Assembly (NCBI RefSeq): GCF_014695575.1
Contig: NZ_JACJOO010000034.1
Coordinates: forward strand, 1 to 46,381
DNA length: 46,381 bases
Reading direction: 5' to 3'
Source of the DNA: Leptolyngbya sp. FACHB-8
Lineage (GTDB): Bacteria; Cyanobacteriota; Cyanobacteriia; Elainellales; Elainellaceae
A program made the position numbers and the translations under genes. The number at the start of each line of letters is the position of its first letter. The first letter of the stretch is position 1. This document shows, one piece after another, positions 31,404-38,647 of the stretch. A model generated the notes under the pieces. It made no database searches. It was given only the letters and a program-made list of their open reading frames with translations, and had not been told where the DNA came from.

Positions 31404-31437
31404 AGACACCAAGTGTTTCTCAAAACACCCGGTGTCT
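31404..31437. repeat. Hairpin similar to the glnN terminator
   Basis: AGACACCAAGTGTTT (31404-31418) and AAACACCCGGTGTCT (31423-31437), mostly paired. The sequence is close to the glnN terminator at 27711-27740, so the two derive from one repeat. Here no T-tract follows directly. Confidence 0.6.
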
Positions 31438-31462
31438 AAGGAGGTTTCTGCATAAGAATCTA

Positions 31463-31515
31463 CCCAGGATGTTGGTGCTTTGCCCGCTTCGCGGGCAAAG
31501 CACCAACATCCTGGG
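31463..31515. repeat. 25-bp-arm perfect TTC-capped palindrome
   Basis: Arms 31463-31487 and 31491-31515, perfectly complementary, starting CCCAGGATGTTGGTGC and capped CCCGC-TTC-GCGGG. Lies after the DUF697 gene (-) and before the glutathione peroxidase gene. Stem sequence unlike the others, cap the same. Confidence 0.8.
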
Positions 31516-31568
31516 GGTAATTTCATTGTTGGAAATCTCCTAACCTCTACAACTTCAGCCAAGCTTTT

Positions 31569-32132
31569 CTAAAGCCGAGACAGCAACTCCTGCTTTTTCG
31601 CCTGAAACTCTTCCTCCGTCAGCACGCCCTGTTCCTTCAACTTGCCGAGCTGCTCTAGCGTCTGAAAAATCTTGGCGGCATCATCGCCCTTATCATTCTC
31701 TAAATCAGATACGTAGGTTTTTCCGCGCTCGAAGGCTGAATCGTAAATCGTTTTGAGCTGGTCTTCTACAAAGTTGTTCAGCGTACCCGAATTTGAGAAA
31801 TGGTTAACAGCGACCTGCCCCACGGCATAGGTTGATGCTCCGGAGGTCAGCGCCATCGAAGCCCCACCCACCAGCGTTCCAACGCCAGGAAGGGCTTTGA
31901 GGAAGCTGGCTCCCAGCCGCGCCAGGCTTGTTCCCGTCAATGCCGAGACAAACGCTTTGCCATTGCTTTTGGAATAATCCACGCCATAAAGCTGGGCCAA
32001 TTGCTGAAGCATTTCCAGTTGAATTGCCGTAACCGCCGCAAAATCTACCAGAGGAATCGGAATCAATCCACCACCCATCGCCCACAACACATGGGTACGG
32101 ATGATCGCTTCAGCTTGCGTATTCTGGCTCAT
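31569..32132 (-). CDS. DUF697-type membrane-associated protein with SHOCT tail
   Basis: 187 residues. Residues ~10-110 match the DUF697/'EcsC-like small' cyanobacterial pattern (HVLWAMGGGLIPIPLVDFAAVTAIQLEML ... YGVDYSKSNGKAF ... LPGVGTLVGG), with two Gly/Ala-rich hydrophobic stretches likely to associate with membrane. The last ~30 residues, LEQLGKLKEQGVLTEEEFQAKKQELL, form a SHOCT domain, a short oligomerising motif. Function unknown. ATG at 32132, upstream GGGAAA weak. Last gene before the AT-rich accessory block. Confidence 0.8.
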   Translation of the reverse strand: MSQNTQAEAIIRTHVLWAMGGGLIPIPLVDFAAVTAIQLEMLQQLAQLYGVDYSKSNGKAFVSALTGTSLARLGASFLKALPGVGTLVGGASMALTSGASTYAVGQVAVNHFSNSGTLNNFVEDQLKTIYDSAFERGKTYVSDLENDKGDDAAKIFQTLEQLGKLKEQGVLTEEEFQAKKQELLSRL

Positions 32133-32577
32133 GGGTGTTTCCCTATAAAACAGTAGGAGAATTTGTCTCTCGGTTAATGGTATTTCAGTTAAAACACATC
32201 CCAGAGGTATCTACCACTAGTACTCTTGTGGTCACACACTCATTCATTGACAGCACAAACCAATCGATTTTTTGGCTTTAATAAGCCTTCATTGATAGTA
32301 TTTACAGAATTCAGAGAAGAGTTTTCAGAAAATTAAACTTTTTGTAAAGAGCAGGTTGTTTCAACTTTGCGAAAGCTACCTTAGAACAAGGCTTTCCAGT
32401 CTTATATTATGACGTCCTAGAGAAGCTAGCTTCTAAATACTTCTCTTAAATAAGTTTAAGGTGCATTCAAATAAATGTTTGCTCAACAATTACTGAGTGA
32501 GCATAGTCCTTATGAATTTACAGAACATAAACAGCTATTGATTTTTTGCCAAACATATTGTTTCAAAAAGGGGAATC
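32133..32577. other. AT-rich left border of the accessory block
   Basis: 445 bp, clearly more AT-rich than the flanking housekeeping DNA. No gene is supported. It contains the leader of the HNH gene (AAAAGGGGAATC before its ATG). No flanking direct repeats, tRNA or integrase were seen. Confidence 0.5.
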
Positions 32578-33705
32578 ATGAATTTAGCCAGAGCAATAGG
32601 ATCATTGTCCTCTAGCGACTTACCGTTAATTAGCGATCGCGAACAGCTACTTTTTACTATTGAAGACACCCGTAAACGTGCTGATCAACTGCAAGAACAA
32701 CTAGTTCCAAAACTTAAAACCCTTCTTACAAAGGCTTGCAGCTTGATTAATGAAATTTATGGCGAACATACACTCTCATCGTGCAGAACAACAACAACTC
32801 CGGCTCACCGTCCAAACGCAAAACAAACTAAACCGTTTGAAGTCGCAACTGCTGGTTTAGCGATAGAAGGCCAAGCATGGTTTTTTCAGCAAAGGTTTGA
32901 GTGCGCCCAAGACAGGCTTTATGTCAACTTTTTTGGGTTAAGAGGGTTAGAGGGTAATCCGATCATTCAGGTGCTTAAAAAGTATCCGAGCGAAGCCATT
33001 CGACTATTAGAATATGGTGAATATGAACTCTATTCGGAGACAATTGAATCTCCTAATGAAGATCAGAGTATAAACTTTATTGAATTGATCAGTAGACTAC
33101 AGTTGGTTCCCGAAAGGGAATGGAAGGGCACTTACATTAGCGGAACTCCTATTCATCTTCCGGTTAAAAATGTTGACAGAATTCTTCCAGCACTTCACGA
33201 CTTTATAGTGCTTTTTCCTATCTTCCGTGCCGCAGCCAATGTATTGAATGGAAAAGATGATTGTTTTAGAGACTATACAGAGCGCTTTTGGCGCTGGCAA
33301 AGCAAGCACCAAACTCCAAAAACTGAACCCTCATCTCATCATTTCCCAGACGAAGTAGACACAACACAGGCATTCCGTGAAGGGGCAGTGAAGCAGGTTC
33401 TAGTCAACACTTACGAGCGAGATCCTAAAGCTCGACAGAGATGTATCGATCACTACGGCTCAAGCTGTGTAGTGTGTGGTTTCAATTTTGGTAAGATTTT
33501 TGGCCCCCTGGGCGAAGGTTTTATTCATATCCATCACTTGCGTCCTATTGCGGAAATAGGAGAAGAGTATGAAGTTGATCCAGTTAAAGATCTACGCCCT
33601 GTCTGCCCAAACTGTCATGCTATGATTCACCATCAATCACCAGCCCTGAGTATTGGAGAAATGAAAATATTATTGGAAACTTTTAGTAAGAATTGTGCCT
33701 TCTAA
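32578..33705 (+). CDS. HNH endonuclease with a long N-terminal domain
   Basis: 375 residues. C-terminal ~90 residues form an HNH nuclease: RCIDHYGSSCVVCGF (zinc Cys pair), FIHIHHLRPIAEIG (catalytic His pair), DLRPVCPNCHAMIHH (Asn, second Cys pair and final His). This resembles the McrA/restriction type HNH found in modification-dependent nucleases. The first ~260 residues are not recognised; they include a predicted helix (residues ~25-60) and a beta-rich segment and may be the target-sensing domain. AT-ending codons contrast with the photosystem genes. ATG at 32578 with AAGGGGA upstream. It opens a four-gene + strand cluster. Confidence 0.85.
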   Translation: MNLARAIGSLSSSDLPLISDREQLLFTIEDTRKRADQLQEQLVPKLKTLLTKACSLINEIYGEHTLSSCRTTTTPAHRPNAKQTKPFEVATAGLAIEGQAWFFQQRFECAQDRLYVNFFGLRGLEGNPIIQVLKKYPSEAIRLLEYGEYELYSETIESPNEDQSINFIELISRLQLVPEREWKGTYISGTPIHLPVKNVDRILPALHDFIVLFPIFRAAANVLNGKDDCFRDYTERFWRWQSKHQTPKTEPSSHHFPDEVDTTQAFREGAVKQVLVNTYERDPKARQRCIDHYGSSCVVCGFNFGKIFGPLGEGFIHIHHLRPIAEIGEEYEVDPVKDLRPVCPNCHAMIHHQSPALSIGEMKILLETFSKNCAF

Positions 33706-33764
33706 ATGCACTACTTATTCTAATACTCCTGTTCTACGAAGATATTTTTGAAAAGGTCTGCAAG

Positions 33765-34337
33765 ATGGTAAAGGTTTGGAAGGAGGAGAATTTAGAACGC
33801 CGAACCCAACATTCAACCTTGCAACCTGTATGGAATTACTTCGTTGAAGTTTGTGGATTCACGTTCAAATTTGATTCCATAGAGCAACTTGAACAGGTGC
33901 TTGAATACTACAGGCAGAAAATTCATCCCAGTTCCATCATTCCGCGCTTAGATCGGTCTCTTGAAAAGATCGATCGGTCTTTAATTCAGCGTTGGTATGA
34001 ACGGCTTCCGCTCTATTTACGGAAAGAACCCAAACGACAGAAAGTGGTCGCGGCTCTGGAACAGGCACGCCAAAGAATTCACGATGATGATTTAACGATT
34101 CATCCGACTGAAACTCCCAAAGGAAAACCCGTACGTTTTGAGCCCGTTAGTGAAGCATTCTGGTGCCGGACGTGCGATCGCCCTCTCGGCTACGGTCGCT
34201 GCAAACGCTGCCGCGCTAAACAAGCCCTCGACCCCGAAAAGTACAAACCCAAAGAACCATCGATCCCCTTCTGCAACACCTGCGGCGTCAATCTTGGACA
34301 GGGCAGCTGCAAATGGTGCAAAGCCCGCAGAAGCTGA
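33765..34337 (+). CDS. Double zinc-ribbon protein
   Basis: 190 residues, function unknown. N-terminal ~120 residues are helical and charged (EQLEQVLEYYRQKIHPSS..., RWYERLPLYLRKEPKRQKVVAALEQARQRI). The C-terminus has two near-identical four-Cys ribbons: CRTCDRPLGYGRCKRCRA and CNTCGVNLGQGSCKWCKA, separated by a Lys/Pro linker. Each CxxC-x7-CxxC fits a zinc-binding, possibly nucleic-acid-binding module. The frame opens at 33693 inside the HNH gene, but the ATG at 33765 with AAAGGT upstream is better; the gap to the HNH gene is then 59 bp. Probably part of the same transcript. Confidence 0.7.
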   Translation: MVKVWKEENLERRTQHSTLQPVWNYFVEVCGFTFKFDSIEQLEQVLEYYRQKIHPSSIIPRLDRSLEKIDRSLIQRWYERLPLYLRKEPKRQKVVAALEQARQRIHDDDLTIHPTETPKGKPVRFEPVSEAFWCRTCDRPLGYGRCKRCRAKQALDPEKYKPKEPSIPFCNTCGVNLGQGSCKWCKARRS

Positions 34338-34516
34338 CAAGAACCATAAAAGACTTTCAGTTGTGTGCGTAGATCACTTAAAGTGCAGCTGCGATTTCAT
34401 AAATAACATATGAAGCTTACTTGGGCTTCCTGATAGGGAATTGGTTATTAGAAAGGAGAATTGTCCCCAACTGGGCACATATAAAAACATGCCTGGCAGT
34501 CTCCCGGATTATAAGC
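34338..34516. other. Spacer upstream of the nuclease-ParA gene
   Basis: Not a gene as far as seen. Contains AGAAAGGAGAATT at 34450, a good Shine-Dalgarno with no matching ATG, and TATAAA and ATTATAAG sequences that could be a -10. A promoter here would separate the ParA/ParB pair from the two upstream genes. The ParA frame is open back to a TTG at 34421. Confidence 0.35.
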
Positions 34517-35857
34517 ATGACACCTATCAGCCTTCGCTCTGCACTACAAAGCTTGCCCGAAAATGCTCTGGAAGCGATTGTTAATCGACAGTTTGCAACC
34601 AAGTTATTAGAAGCTTTAGGCTTTCAGGCTGAGGAAATTTACCCTGAGTATCCCATTCGCAGAATGGCTGTCGATATAGCGGCCCGGAAGAATGTTGGGG
34701 ATGACATTTTTATTAACACTAAAAAGAATCCCTATCTTTTAGTCGAACTAAAAGGTAGGGACGTCAATCTGACAGAAGGAAGCCAACCCTATAAGAATAC
34801 TGTTCAACAGTTGAAACGGTATTTGCTAGCTCCTGAATGTCATTCAGCGGCATGGGGAATCATTACCAATTCATGCCATATACAACTTTTCCGAAAACAT
34901 GGAAAGGTCGTTTTTCCTGCAACTCCGTGCCATCCCATTAACAAGGATAATATCGAGGATATTACAGCTACAATTCGAGAGAAAATCGAGTCTCCCTCCA
35001 GGGCCCTAACAATAGCTCTATACAATAACAAGGGTGGCGTAGGAAAAACAACGACTACAGTCAATCTTGCGGGTATTCTTACACTGCTTGGAAAAAAGAT
35101 CTTGGTCATTGACTTTGATCCCAACCAACAGGATTTAACAAGTGCATTAGGATTACCACTGAGTGAAGACGCTCTCTTCACAGCTCTCATCAATCGCGAT
35201 ACAGAGTTAAAAACTGCTATCCGTCCTTATAAGTTCTTATTTAGAAGTAAAAAACTGGAAACCAGATTTGATGTCATCCCATCAGATAAAAGGCTAGTTT
35301 CTGAAGCCGAAAATGAGCTGAAGATACATGGTTATAAGCCAGGCAATGGCTTACTTCATCGCAAACTGAAATCTCTAAGAAACGAATACGATTATATTTT
35401 GATAGACGCGCCTCCTAATTGGCGTCTTTTCAGCAAACTAGCAGTTTATGCAGCAGATGTTGTTCTACTTCCGACAAAACACAACAACTTGTTCTCTTTA
35501 GAAAATGCTGTTACTGCAATTAAGGATTTTATTCCTGAAATACAACAGGAAAAGAGTGATGGCAGTCCAATTGCTTTACCCATTTTCTTTAATGGCGAAA
35601 GAATGACGGAGCCTCAGAAAGCTGCCGTAGAAAAAGTTATGGAGAGCATGATTCAGGCGGCTAAAAGGAACGATGGATTTGATTTAGCTCCTTATTTCTT
35701 TCCTAAGAGACGCCGTGCTGGAGAAGACACGCATGTTCTCTGTGTACCCGGCCATGCAAGTATTTCGAGTTCAGCGTTCTTTCGTGTTCCTGCCGTTTTT
35801 CGAGATAAATCAGCCCTTGAGTACTACAAGAACTTAGTGAAGGAGTATTTTCTATAA
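34517..35857 (+). CDS. Fusion of a PD-(D/E)XK-like nuclease domain and a ParA ATPase
   Basis: 446 residues. Residues ~15-130 look like a restriction-type nuclease fold (HsdR N-terminus-like): YPEYPIRRMAVDIAAR gives Asp53, then PYLLVELKGR gives Glu77-Leu-Lys79, the D...ExK pattern. Residues ~164-446 are a ParA/MinD-type ATPase: deviant Walker A NNKGGVGKTTTTVNLAG (172-179), IDFDPNQQDLTSALGL, and YDYILIDAPPN (Walker B). ATG at 34517 is used; the frame extends to a TTG at 34421. The stop overlaps the next ATG by one base (TAATG), so ParA and the ParB-like protein are translationally coupled. Plain partition ParA proteins do not carry such a nuclease domain. Activity of both domains is inferred. 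Confidence 0.8.
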   Translation: MTPISLRSALQSLPENALEAIVNRQFATKLLEALGFQAEEIYPEYPIRRMAVDIAARKNVGDDIFINTKKNPYLLVELKGRDVNLTEGSQPYKNTVQQLKRYLLAPECHSAAWGIITNSCHIQLFRKHGKVVFPATPCHPINKDNIEDITATIREKIESPSRALTIALYNNKGGVGKTTTTVNLAGILTLLGKKILVIDFDPNQQDLTSALGLPLSEDALFTALINRDTELKTAIRPYKFLFRSKKLETRFDVIPSDKRLVSEAENELKIHGYKPGNGLLHRKLKSLRNEYDYILIDAPPNWRLFSKLAVYAADVVLLPTKHNNLFSLENAVTAIKDFIPEIQQEKSDGSPIALPIFFNGERMTEPQKAAVEKVMESMIQAAKRNDGFDLAPYFFPKRRRAGEDTHVLCVPGHASISSSAFFRVPAVFRDKSALEYYKNLVKEYFL

Positions 35858-36597
35858 TGGCGAATCCAAAAGATATTGGAAATTTAATGCACCTTTATCT
35901 CGATGAAATTGATCCGGGTAAAGGAACGAATACTCCTCAATTTCTCATTCAGGCTTCTGCTCATTTGCTGAACGAAAAGGGTAGGCGAAATTGGGTTCCG
36001 TTAATTGTGAGAGAAGTAGGAGGCGATCGCTACGAGGTCATTGGCAACACCTTTGTCTATGCCGTTGCAGAAGAAGCAGGCTTAGAACGAGTTTGGTGCA
36101 TTATTGCTGACGACAGCGATAACACCGCCGAAGTTACTCGCGTATTAGCGGGTGAAGAGATACCAAAAGTAAATCTCTCGAAAGCATCGAGAGATGAAAT
36201 TATGGCAGCTCTGGAATATGTCATGGAACAACCCGGCAGCCCTCTCAAAACCATTAAGTTAGCCGTAGCCACCAATCGTATCGATGAAGCTCCCCGACAA
36301 TTTTGGAAGACACTCGATCCAGTTGTCACCTTAAAGTGCGGGATTACAAAAGGGAAGAAGCTAGATGTACTCAAGCAAGTCTTCTATCTAACTCCACAGC
36401 TCAAATCAGAACCACAGCCAGAACCTGAACCAGAAGACAAACTAGAAGGCAATTTAAAAGCCACTGGCGATACCATCTCTCTTCAAAGCATGACAGCCGC
36501 CAAGTTGAAGGAGTTAGCCAAGAAACAGAAAATTTATGGCTATAGCAAAATGAAAAAAGACGAGCTTATTGCAGCTCTAAGCCAAGCCAGCCAATAA
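35857..36597 (+). CDS. ParB-like protein with a Rho-N/SAP-like C-terminus
   Basis: 246 residues. Residues ~35-90 resemble the ParB/Srx N-terminal fold (NWVPLIVREVGGDRYEVIGNTFVYAVAEEAGLERVWCIIAD), but the Arg-rich GxRRxxA box is replaced by GNTFVYA, so the usual CTP/partner-binding box is degenerate. No central ParB HTH is obvious. After an acidic Pro/Glu linker, the last ~40 residues (LQSMTAAKLKELAKKQKIYGYSKMKKDELIAAL) match the Rho termination factor N-terminal/SAP-like fold, which binds nucleic acid. It overlaps the nuclease-ParA stop by one base. Probably the DNA- or RNA-binding partner of that ATPase (inference). Confidence 0.75.
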   Translation: MANPKDIGNLMHLYLDEIDPGKGTNTPQFLIQASAHLLNEKGRRNWVPLIVREVGGDRYEVIGNTFVYAVAEEAGLERVWCIIADDSDNTAEVTRVLAGEEIPKVNLSKASRDEIMAALEYVMEQPGSPLKTIKLAVATNRIDEAPRQFWKTLDPVVTLKCGITKGKKLDVLKQVFYLTPQLKSEPQPEPEPEDKLEGNLKATGDTISLQSMTAAKLKELAKKQKIYGYSKMKKDELIAALSQASQ

Positions 36598-36615
36598 TCT
36601 CAGCGCTACTGGAAT

Positions 36616-36651
36616 GAATAGGAAGGTGTACTTCGTCCACCTTCCTATTCA
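36616..36651. terminator. Shared TTC-capped hairpin between ParB-like gene and tag
   Basis: 16-bp arms GAATAGGAAGGTGTAC (36616-36631) and 36635-36650 with one mismatch, loop TTC. It lies 18 bases past the ParB-like stop and overlaps the tag stop codon (36649-36651), so it could end both convergent transcripts. Confidence 0.65.
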
Positions 36652-37218
36652 GCTTTTCATTTCCAAGTAGCGGAAACAGTCCGTCGTGTGATCATTCACA
36701 AACCCACAGGCCTGCATCAAGGCATAGCAAATCGTCGGCCCCACAAAATTGCAGCCTCGTTTCCGTAAATCCTTGCTCATGGCACGAGATTCAGGCGTTT
36801 CTGCTGGGACTTCGGCTATCGATTTCCAGGCATTCACGATCGGTTGGCCATCGACGAACTGCCAGAGATAGCGATCGAGGCTCCCAAATTCCTGGCGGAT
36901 TTTCAGCACAGCACGGGCATTGCGTACCGCCGCTTCTACCTTGAGGCGATTGCGGATGATGCTGGCGTTGGTCAGGAGCGTGGCAATTTTTGCGTCGTCG
37001 TAGTGGGCGATCGCCTCTACATCAAACCCATCAAACGCCTCTCGATAGGCCTCCCGTTTCCGCAGCACCGTCAACCAGCTCAGCCCCGCCTGCGCTCCTT
37101 CCAGAATTAGGAATTCAAACAGACGGGTGTCGTCGTGAACAGGAACACCCCATTCGTGGTCGTGATAGTCAAGATAAAGCGGGTCAGACGTAACCCAGGC
37201 ACAGCGGGTCAGTGGCAT
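36649..37218 (-). CDS. tag: DNA-3-methyladenine glycosylase I
   Basis: 189 residues. Base-excision repair enzyme that removes 3-methyladenine. Seen: RCAWVTSDPLYLDYHDHEWGVP with the first zinc Cys and His, the LEGAQAGLSWLTVLRKRE helix, and CGFVNDHTTDCFRY with the other zinc His/Cys. The frame is open to 37266, inside tldD. The ATG at 37218 leaves a 4-bp gap to the tldD stop and starts MPLTRCAWV, as in the family. Second gene of a tldD-tag pair. Confidence 0.93.
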   Translation of the reverse strand: MPLTRCAWVTSDPLYLDYHDHEWGVPVHDDTRLFEFLILEGAQAGLSWLTVLRKREAYREAFDGFDVEAIAHYDDAKIATLLTNASIIRNRLKVEAAVRNARAVLKIRQEFGSLDRYLWQFVDGQPIVNAWKSIAEVPAETPESRAMSKDLRKRGCNFVGPTICYALMQACGFVNDHTTDCFRYLEMKS

Positions 37219-37222
37219 AGGC

Positions 37223-38647
37223 TTACTCGCGCCAGGTGTCGCCGCTATCCTCGTCGGTTTCGCCACCTACAACTACGTTGCGAATGCGTAGACTAGGGCC
37301 ACCACACCCGACAGGCAAACCACTCTGGCCCCCTTTGCCACAGCCACCCGACTCATCCCAGAAGAAATCATTGCCGATCGCCTCAATATCCTCCAGAGTC
37401 GTAAACACATTCCCCGATAGCGACACATCCCGCACCGGCTCCGCCACCTTACCATTGCGAATCATCCAGGCCTCCCCAGCAGTAAAGGTGAACATTTCGC
37501 CGTTGGTCATGCCACCAATCCAGTTCTTGGCGTAGACCCCTTCCTGGATCCCTTCGAACAAATCTTCCACAGGCGTTGTACCCGGTTCAATCCAGGTATT
37601 GGTCATGCGCACGATGGGGGAGTAGTGGTAATTCAAACAGCGAGCATTCCCCGTCACGGGCTCCTCCAGCTTGCCAGCCGTCTCACGGGAGTGCAGACGT
37701 CCCACCAACACCCCATCCTTAATTAACTGTGTCGTCGTTGCAGGCACCCCTTCGTCATCGTAGGCATAGCTGCCCCGATGTCCCTCTGGGGCCGCTCCAT
37801 CGAGGATTTGTAATTCACTGGGACCAAAGCTACGGCCCAGGGTCATCACCTCCATCAAGTCGGGGTTTTCGTAAATCATGTCCGACTCGGAGAGATGCCC
37901 GAAAGCTTCATGAACGAACAGCCCGGTGAGGATGGGATCGATCACAACGGTATAGGTATTGCCTTTCACAGGAGGCAGTTCCAAAGCATTCACCGCCCTC
38001 CGGGCTGCACTCTGCACCAGATCGTCCAGATTCATCAAATCCTCGTAAGCACGACGGGAGCCAGTGGTTTCGCGACCTGTTTGCACCGTTTCGCTATTAC
38101 GGGCGGTAGCGGCAAAGCGCATTTCCATATCCACCCAGGACTGCTCAATCAGCGTACCTTCCGAGGTAGCAATAATGATGTGCTGAGTGCTGTCCCCGTA
38201 ACGCACCGATGTGGTGGTGATGCAATCGTTCACGCTGCGAAGAATATCGGCATAGTGGCTACACAAAGCCTTTTTCTCAGCCAGGGGAACCTTGCGAGGA
38301 TCGGAACCAAACAGTTGCAGGGGCCGGCTGTCTTGAATGATGGGAATGGGAGCCAGCAGGGTTTCCTCTTCACCCACCATCCGAGCAGCAGCGATCGCCT
38401 CCTCAATCCGCTCGGTTAGCTGGTCAAGCTGATTGAAGCTAGCAAACCCCCACCCACCTCGGAAGCAAGCTCGCACCTGCCCCCCAATGGAAACGCCTTC
38501 GCTGAGGGTTTCCACCTGCCCTCGCCGCAATAGTATGTCCGTTCCCTCAGATTCCTCTAGACGGATGGCCAGGTAATCGACCCTGGCCTTATAGCGTTGG
38601 ATGCGATCGCTCAGCAAATCAAAGGCATTATGCAGTACAGAAGCCAT
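37223..38647 (-). CDS. tldD: TldD/PmbA family metalloprotease TldD
   Basis: 474 residues. Zinc protease of the TldD/TldE type that degrades unfolded peptides and helps mature some RiPPs and the CcdA antitoxin. Seen: zinc site FVHEAFGHLSESD (HExxxH), the Cys-containing C-terminal block DESGGCGKGGQSGLPVGCGGPSLRIRNVVVGG and the GNARCLNYHYSPIVRMTNTWIEPG segment. The usual partner TldE/PmbA is not in the window. ATG at 38647 is the natural start. First gene of a - strand pair with tag; the tag start follows the stop by 4 bp. Confidence 0.94.
   Translation of the reverse strand: MASVLHNAFDLLSDRIQRYKARVDYLAIRLEESEGTDILLRRGQVETLSEGVSIGGQVRACFRGGWGFASFNQLDQLTERIEEAIAAARMVGEEETLLAPIPIIQDSRPLQLFGSDPRKVPLAEKKALCSHYADILRSVNDCITTTSVRYGDSTQHIIIATSEGTLIEQSWVDMEMRFAATARNSETVQTGRETTGSRRAYEDLMNLDDLVQSAARRAVNALELPPVKGNTYTVVIDPILTGLFVHEAFGHLSESDMIYENPDLMEVMTLGRSFGPSELQILDGAAPEGHRGSYAYDDEGVPATTTQLIKDGVLVGRLHSRETAGKLEEPVTGNARCLNYHYSPIVRMTNTWIEPGTTPVEDLFEGIQEGVYAKNWIGGMTNGEMFTFTAGEAWMIRNGKVAEPVRDVSLSGNVFTTLEDIEAIGNDFFWDESGGCGKGGQSGLPVGCGGPSLRIRNVVVGGETDEDSGDTWRE

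What the first reader, a model, noticed from the sequence alone, without database searches (positions are those of the whole stretch)
32578..36597. Four-gene nuclease/zinc-ribbon/nuclease-ParA/ParB-like cluster: candidate undescribed defence or DNA-targeting system
In the sequence: four + strand genes in an AT-rich block between housekeeping genes: HNH endonuclease with an unknown 260-residue front domain, a protein ending in two Cys4 ribbons, a PD-(D/E)XK-like/ParA fusion, and a ParB-like protein with a Rho-N/SAP-like tail. The last two overlap by one base. Known: ParA/ParB pairs partition DNA; HNH and PD-(D/E)XK domains are common in restriction and abortive systems. Inference: ParA-type ATPase plus ParB-like loader could place or license two nucleases on foreign DNA. 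I know of no named system with exactly this set.
Basis: partly seen in the sequence, partly recalled or inferred. Interest (0 to 1): 0.85.

Follow-up and report, generated by a model that had tools for sequence, protein, structure and literature searches.

The report
Nuclease-armed ParA/ParB-like gene pair
Two of the four genes form a patchily spread pair, a DNA-positioning-type ATPase fused to a nuclease domain plus a ParB-like partner, seen in cyanobacterial relatives, on plasmids and on one viral contig; its function is untested, and the other two genes do not appear to belong to it.

Summary
The four + strand genes are real, but they are not one system. Across 146 relatives the ParA fusion (C) occurs in 43, the ParB-like gene (D) in 39, both in 35 (11.5 expected); D lies beside C in 39 of 47 loci. 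The HNH gene (A) has one full-length relative there, unlinked to C-D; the zinc-ribbon gene (B) is nearly an orphan. C-D has its own conserved upstream element: the unit is about 34415-36651. C joins an HSDR_N-type PD-(D/E)XK nuclease domain to ParA: E51, D85, E109 and both Walker lysines in 45 of 45 rows, K111 in 43. D resembles the ParB N-domain, but 0 of 39 rows keep the two GERR arginines. The pair is patchy, lower in G+C than its flanks in 38 of 43 loci, under purifying selection, and on plasmids and one viral contig. No defence-island enrichment and no parS-like array were shown. Best guess: a partition-derived machine that aims a nuclease at DNA, for element competition or immunity (0.4); main rival: partition/stability (0.33). 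Seven searches of open papers listed no description.

The parts
34415..34516 (+). conserved non-coding element directly upstream of C (promoter/operator, inferred)
   Evidence: 42 columns at least 7 of 9 identical in 9 loci, against 3-8 columns at eight control offsets in the same loci; nhmmer found one copy in each of the 9 loci and, in the other 38 loci of the file, only one chance-level match (E 2)
34517..35857 (+). C: PD-(D/E)XK (HSDR_N_2) nuclease domain fused to ParA/AAA_31 ATPase, 446 aa from ATG 34517
   Evidence: Pfam; conserved active-site and Walker residues; dN/dS 0.08-0.31 (nuclease) and 0.03-0.61 (ParA) in nine pairs
35857..36597 (+). D: ParB-like protein without the GERR arginines, with a Rho_N (SAP-like) tail, 246 aa
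   Evidence: starts on the last base of C's stop codon
36615..36651 (.). inverted repeat, 17-nt arms, 3-nt loop, between D and the convergent methyladenine glycosylase gene: terminator-like (inferred)
   Evidence: I2
32578..33705 (+). A: separate gene, HNH endonuclease with unknown front domain; NOT part of the module
33693..34337 (+). B: separate near-orphan with two Cys4 ribbons, probably starting at 33765 (inferred); NOT part of the module

Best explanation
C-D is a self-standing, horizontally moving two-gene DNA-targeting module built from a partition pair. Shown: architecture, pairing, conserved nuclease and ATPase residues, loss of the ParB GERR arginines, patchy spread, purifying selection. 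Inferred: ATP makes the ParA part of C dimerise and bind DNA; D, a ParB-fold adaptor working without the usual CTP switch, binds C, controls its ATPase and places it on (or releases it from) particular DNA through its tail; the nuclease domain then cuts DNA where C accumulates. Most likely role: removal or exclusion of competing plasmid or phage DNA, or protection of the carrying element.
For: Nuclease residues E51, D85, E109 in 45 of 45 and K111 in 43 of 45 rows, also in the divergent plasmid copies; Walker K204 and K209 in 45 of 45. Nuclease-domain dN/dS 0.08-0.31 in nine pairs, five of them within one host family. C and D together in 35 genomes, 11.5 expected; D beside C in 39 of 47 loci; own upstream element. 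Patchy: 43 of 146 relatives, 45 of 386 of the phylum sample, both counts with the window's genome; absent at E 1e-30 from the one same-genus genome searched, G001. Host family f1 needs 6 label changes on the tree, 4 forced by well-supported branches; a plasmid copy and the viral copy group at full support. Lower G+C than flanks in 38 of 43 loci. Three Nostoc plasmids with C-D carry other partition genes: ParM on two, ParA/ParB on a third.
Against: No catalytic, binding or protection data exist. The PADLOC scans of near and far neighbours show no clear defence enrichment. Seven f26 loci keep C with no D beside it (best E 0.003), and D was not found in those genomes at E 1e-10, so D is not always needed. 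Two rows (L087, L088) have E in place of K111. AlphaFold models were poor (pLDDT 37 and 58) and the nuclease domain had no relative in the PDB by sequence, so its fold rests on Pfam profiles and conserved residues.
Confidence: 0.4

Rival explanations
1. C-D is a plasmid/phage partition (ParABS-like) system that has also spread to chromosomes; the nuclease-like domain serves DNA binding, autoregulation or addiction rather than attack on foreign DNA.
For: ParA and ParB-like genes in operon order with a one-base overlap; pairs on six plasmid stretches and one IMG/VR contig; an annotated site-specific integrase next to C-D on two Nostoc plasmids.
Against: Catalytic residues are conserved, which DNA binding alone would not require. 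Of 40 genome regions, 15 lie on contigs over 1 Mb and 23 over 100 kb (the replicon of the other 17 is unknown). Three of the plasmids have another partition system. No repeat array resembling parS was found at 32133-36800.
Confidence: 0.33
2. C-D positions a chromosomal or protein cargo, or acts in host DNA repair/recombination, as a domesticated ParA-family switch.
For: Solo C is kept in seven f26 loci, five of them in shared gene order, with G+C equal to the flanks within 0.01 and low dN/dS.
Against: Elsewhere patchy, in scattered contexts with no conserved neighbour, and AT-rich against flanks.
Confidence: 0.17
3. All four genes A-D form one defence system, as first proposed.
For: Adjacent, same strand, all AT-rich.
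Against: A and B do not co-occur with C-D; C-D has its own upstream element after B.
Confidence: 0.04

Closest known systems
ParABS plasmid/chromosome partition (type I)
   Same: ParA with deviant Walker A (KGGVGKT), ParB-like gene directly downstream, alignment across the ParB box II region
   Different: nuclease domain fused to ParA; no GERR arginines in 39 D rows; Rho_N tail; no parS array seen in the window
CTP-independent ParATS of Streptomyces plasmid SCP2 (PMC12260392, passages read)
   Same: a ParB-like partner that works without CTP next to a ParA; the paper reports ParT homologues in 21 cyanobacterial species
   Different: by that paper ParT lacks an apparent CTPase domain, whereas D aligns with that domain but lacks its arginines; 44 of the 45 ParT homologues with a nearby ParA are Actinomycetota; 'nuclease' does not occur in its main text. 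Whether D is a ParT homologue was not tested
HsdR N-terminal nuclease domain of Type I restriction (HSDR_N/HSDR_N_2)
   Same: PF13588 match in 9 of 11 and PF04313 in 4 of 11 members; PD-(D/E)XK-type residues
   Different: ParA in place of the SF2 motor; no recurrent HsdM/HsdS neighbour family, none annotated in the six plasmid stretches
SGI1 use of the IncC plasmid parABS to expel it (PMC10954446, search listing only)
   Same: partition parts used in element competition (analogy of role only)
   Different: sequence relation not tested; no nuclease fusion is mentioned in the title or the start of the abstract
Type IV (modification-dependent) HNH restriction enzymes, for gene A alone
   Same: HNH domain; weak mREase_IV match, E 5.8e-5, over residues 273-362
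   Different: front domain unmatched; not part of C-D

Membership tests
ParABS partition system | ParA-family ATPase with deviant Walker A | tested here: met
   AAA_31 E 2.8e-34, 14 of 14 members; K204 and K209 in 45 of 45 rows
ParABS partition system | ParB with CTP-binding GERR box | tested here: not met
   the aligned positions mostly hold N-(S/T/H)-F-(I/V); no arginine at 66 or 67 in 39 rows. CTP binding itself was not tested
ParABS partition system | ParB N-domain homology | tested here: inconclusive
   PF02195 in 7 of 11 members at E up to 0.01, window protein below cut-off; hhalign to one ParB: probability 68%, E 4.9e-5; weak Foldseek matches to Spo0J (E 0.05), ParB and Noc with a low-confidence model
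ParABS partition system | central HTH DNA-binding domain of ParB | tested here: inconclusive
   no HTH family among the five Pfam families matched by 11 members at E up to 0.01; Rho_N in 10
ParABS partition system | parS sites near the operon | tested here: inconclusive
   no repeat array at 32133-36800; the upstream element is single copy
ParABS partition system | stabilises its replicon | not testable with these tools
   needs a plasmid-loss assay
Type I restriction | HsdR with PD-(D/E)XK plus SF2 helicase, with HsdM and HsdS | tested here: not met
   only the N-terminal domain matches, no helicase family in C; no recurrent neighbour family beside C and D apart from shared synteny and common families
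Known anti-phage systems (PADLOC-DB 2.0.0) | profile match of the components C and D | tested here: not met
   C: PDC-M28B and a weak mad8 match, both limited to the ATPase part; D: none at E up to 1

The most novel reading that the evidence does not exclude
A nuclease-armed partition machine: a mobile immune or competition system in which a ParB-like adaptor that no longer uses the usual CTP switch steers a ParA-nuclease to foreign or rival DNA, spread through cyanobacterial chromosomes, plasmids and at least one viral contig.
Probability: 0.35. Interest if true: 0.85.

Novelty: new variant of a known kind. Interest (0 to 1): 0.6.

Why it matters
If the reading holds, ParA, known as a DNA and cargo positioner, has been turned into the aiming part of a nuclease. 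That would link DNA partition and DNA immunity mechanistically, and would give a common gene pair for which I found no description (nuclease domain in 45 of 386 sampled genomes of the phylum) a testable role in plasmid and phage exchange.

Tried and rejected
Four-gene unit: rejected on distribution. Replacement of canonical ParB by C-D: rejected; TIGR00180 in 74 of 146 genomes, 25 of the 43 C genomes, 21.8 expected, p=0.28. Empty-site test in same-genus G001: inconclusive, because the flanking genes lie on two contigs with other neighbours.

Defence-island test: 127 near and 108 far neighbour genes scanned with PADLOC at E 1e-15. Near: PDC-S03 4 and mad3 4 of 127, single matches to mREase_IV, ThsB, Csx1, a Cas12f-like and a PD_DExK family. 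Far: mad3 4, mad8 3, HerA 2 of 108, single methyltransferases and others. Only the first 25 of 55 and of 112 families are shown and the number of genes with any match is not given, so no enrichment was computed. Pfam, near genes only: Uma2 (putative restriction endonuclease) 5, DUF29 4, AAA_21 4 of 127, first 25 of 199 families shown; there is no far control for Pfam. These sets use 32 of the 47 loci: the window, six plasmid stretches, three short-contig loci and five of the six loci of one f26 genus were left out, as were genes under 110 residues.

AlphaFold of C: useless, pLDDT 37 with two sequences. PDB sequence search with the nuclease domain: nothing credible. B's weak match in G143 lies in a frame that reads like PEP carboxylase (my reading) and is taken as chance; the one in G126 was not inspected. 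A's front domain in 194 phylum genomes (G016 is not among the hits): own match plus two at E 4e-4 and 9e-4. The fusion in other phyla: not searched; in plasmids, all seven listed records that cover at least 73% of C are cyanobacterial (40 of 161 listed). Rows dropped: of 43 C genomes, 40 regions were fetched wide plus the window; G088 and G099 (C split over contigs) were not; L073 (cut by the contig end) and L090 (frame broken) were left out of the C alignment of 45. Two of eleven dN/dS pairs were saturated.

Full report
WHAT IS THERE. The window is a whole 46 kb contig of an unnamed 6.9 Mb assembly. Its psaA/psaB-like genes (my reading of the ORFs) and the best named matches of C, Nostoc plasmids, point to a cyanobacterium. 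Between a DUF697 gene (31569-32132, -) and a methyladenine glycosylase gene (36649-37266, -) lie four + strand ORFs, here A, B, C and D, in an AT-rich block (42.2% against 50.8% G+C). A has an HNH domain, C an HSDR_N_2 and a ParA/AAA_31 domain, D a weak ParB_N and a good Rho_N match.

THE UNIT IS C-D. In 146 relatives C is found in 43 at E up to 1e-30 and D in 39 at E up to 1e-10; 35 have both, 11.5 expected (Fisher p 1.4e-21, not corrected for kinship). Of the 8 C genomes without D at that threshold, 7 are of host family f26 and the eighth (G057) has a weak D beside C. Four genomes have D without C at those thresholds (not looked into). In 47 loci (window, 6 plasmid stretches, 40 genome regions) D lies next to C in 39; the other 8 are 7 f26 loci and one broken C at a contig end. 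No other gene family recurs beside them beyond common families (ABC transporters, dehydrogenases and the like) and the shared synteny of f26 genomes and of the Nostoc plasmids. A match to A, mostly to its HNH domain alone, occurs in 25 of 146, 8 of them with C, 7.4 expected; the only other near-full-length A lies among unrelated genes in G016, on another contig than C-D. B has one partial relative, in G104, on another contig than C. The 102 bases just upstream of C's ATG 34517 are conserved in 9 loci (42 columns at 7 of 9 or better; eight control offsets gave 3-8) and occur once per locus; the element was not found in the more distant C-D loci. An inverted repeat after D (36615-36651) looks like a terminator.

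C. The first domain matches HSDR_N_2 in 9 of 11 members and HSDR_N in 4 of 11. In 45 rows E51, D85 and E109 (478-residue numbering; E19, D53, E77 from ATG 34517) are invariant, K111 is kept in 43 and Q130 in 40; the four divergent plasmid copies keep E, D, E and K. Both Walker lysines are invariant. In the phylum sample the domain is found in 45 of 386 genomes; 42 of the 47 listed places lie in open frames over 420 residues, which suggests that it is nearly always fused; the others are short frames or a broken copy. In nine pairs dN/dS is 0.08-0.31 for the nuclease and 0.03-0.61 for the ParA part; five of the nine pairs are within f26, and two further pairs were saturated.

D. Pfam finds Rho_N in 10 of 11 and ParB_N in 7 of 11 members at E up to 0.01. 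Aligned with one canonical ParB, the GERR box falls on N-(S/T/H)-F-(I/V); N64 is kept in 38 of 39 rows and no row has arginine at 66 or 67. That these arginines serve CTP binding is recalled; the ParB survey PMC12704722 (abstract and passages seen) says that Boxes I-III enable CTP binding, and the words Rho and SAP domain do not occur in its main text. Several D homologues repeat residues 105-178. The D model is of low confidence; its first Foldseek match is Spo0J at E 0.05, with ParB and Noc further down, none significant.

WHERE IT IS AND HOW IT MOVES. The one same-genus genome searched, G001, lacks C. The tree of 46 C proteins needs 6 label changes for host family f1 and 3 for plasmids (4 and 2 forced by well-supported branches); several deep forks are weak and four rows are long. 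C-D has lower G+C than its flanks in 38 of 43 loci, mean -0.066; the five exceptions are L060 and four f26 loci. Of 40 genome regions 15 lie on contigs over 1 Mb and 23 over 100 kb. Plasmids: Nostoc sp. UHCC 0870 unnamed9 and unnamed4 (C 53% and 49% identical), and distant pairs on unnamed10, Pseudanabaena ABRG53g and pPg_01 and Leptolyngbya boryana pLBA. One IMG/VR contig carries C-D; that it is viral is the collection's label, not checked here. In 50,697 phage records no place covers 80% of C and D has no match.

WHAT IT MAY DO. A ParA part that should bind DNA on ATP, a partner that should regulate it, and a constrained nuclease domain are best explained by directed DNA cleavage; whether it targets invaders, rivals or plasmid-free cells is open. 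Against defence: no enrichment could be shown around C-D (the most frequent nearby Pfam family, Uma2, 5 of 127, is a putative restriction endonuclease family but has no control). Against plain partition: conserved catalytic residues, copies on megabase contigs, other partition genes on three of the plasmids. It does not replace canonical ParB. Solo C in f26 shows that the fusion can be kept without D.

LITERATURE. Searches over open PMC papers listed no paper on a nuclease-ParA fusion; for most papers only the listing was seen, and not all hits were listed. PMC12260392 (passages) describes a CTP-independent ParB-like partner, ParT. PMC7156551 (passages) reports ParA and ParB in a cyanophage. 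The passages shown of PMC1913061 and PMC10899382 mention no such fusion. Preprints and most subscription papers are not held, so 'undescribed' is provisional.

Noticed in passing
window 31435-31550: Hairpin element with a stem of about 25 bp (DNA fold z -9.8) between the glutathione-peroxidase-like (my reading) and DUF697 genes; near-identical copies on six other contigs of the same assembly. MITE/REP-like.
   Followed up: partly
L199 6114-11015 (IMGVR_UViG_2910170622_000001): D matches twice inside a 1633-residue protein on a viral contig, near terminase/portal-like genes (my reading).
   Followed up: no
window 32578-33705; L112 7529-8677; L063 2683-3723: Gene A: HNH nuclease with an unmatched front domain of about 250 residues, also found in G016; a 346-residue protein in L063 shares residues 11-95 weakly (24%, E 1e-5) and ends HNH-like (my reading). 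Possibly a modification-dependent restriction enzyme.
   Followed up: partly
L089, L091-L096: Host family f26 keeps C without D; five of the seven loci share gene order, and C has about the same G+C as its flanks: perhaps domesticated.
   Followed up: partly
L087, L088: Two C copies of host family f17 have E in place of the active-site K111.
   Followed up: no
window 35582-35599 and 35847-35864: Two 18-nt stretches, 17 identical, one inside C and one across the C/D junction; may be chance.
   Followed up: no
L074, L076, L079, L080, L085, L087, L097 (D homologues): A region like residues 105-178 of D matches a second time in these homologues, an apparent duplication.
   Followed up: no
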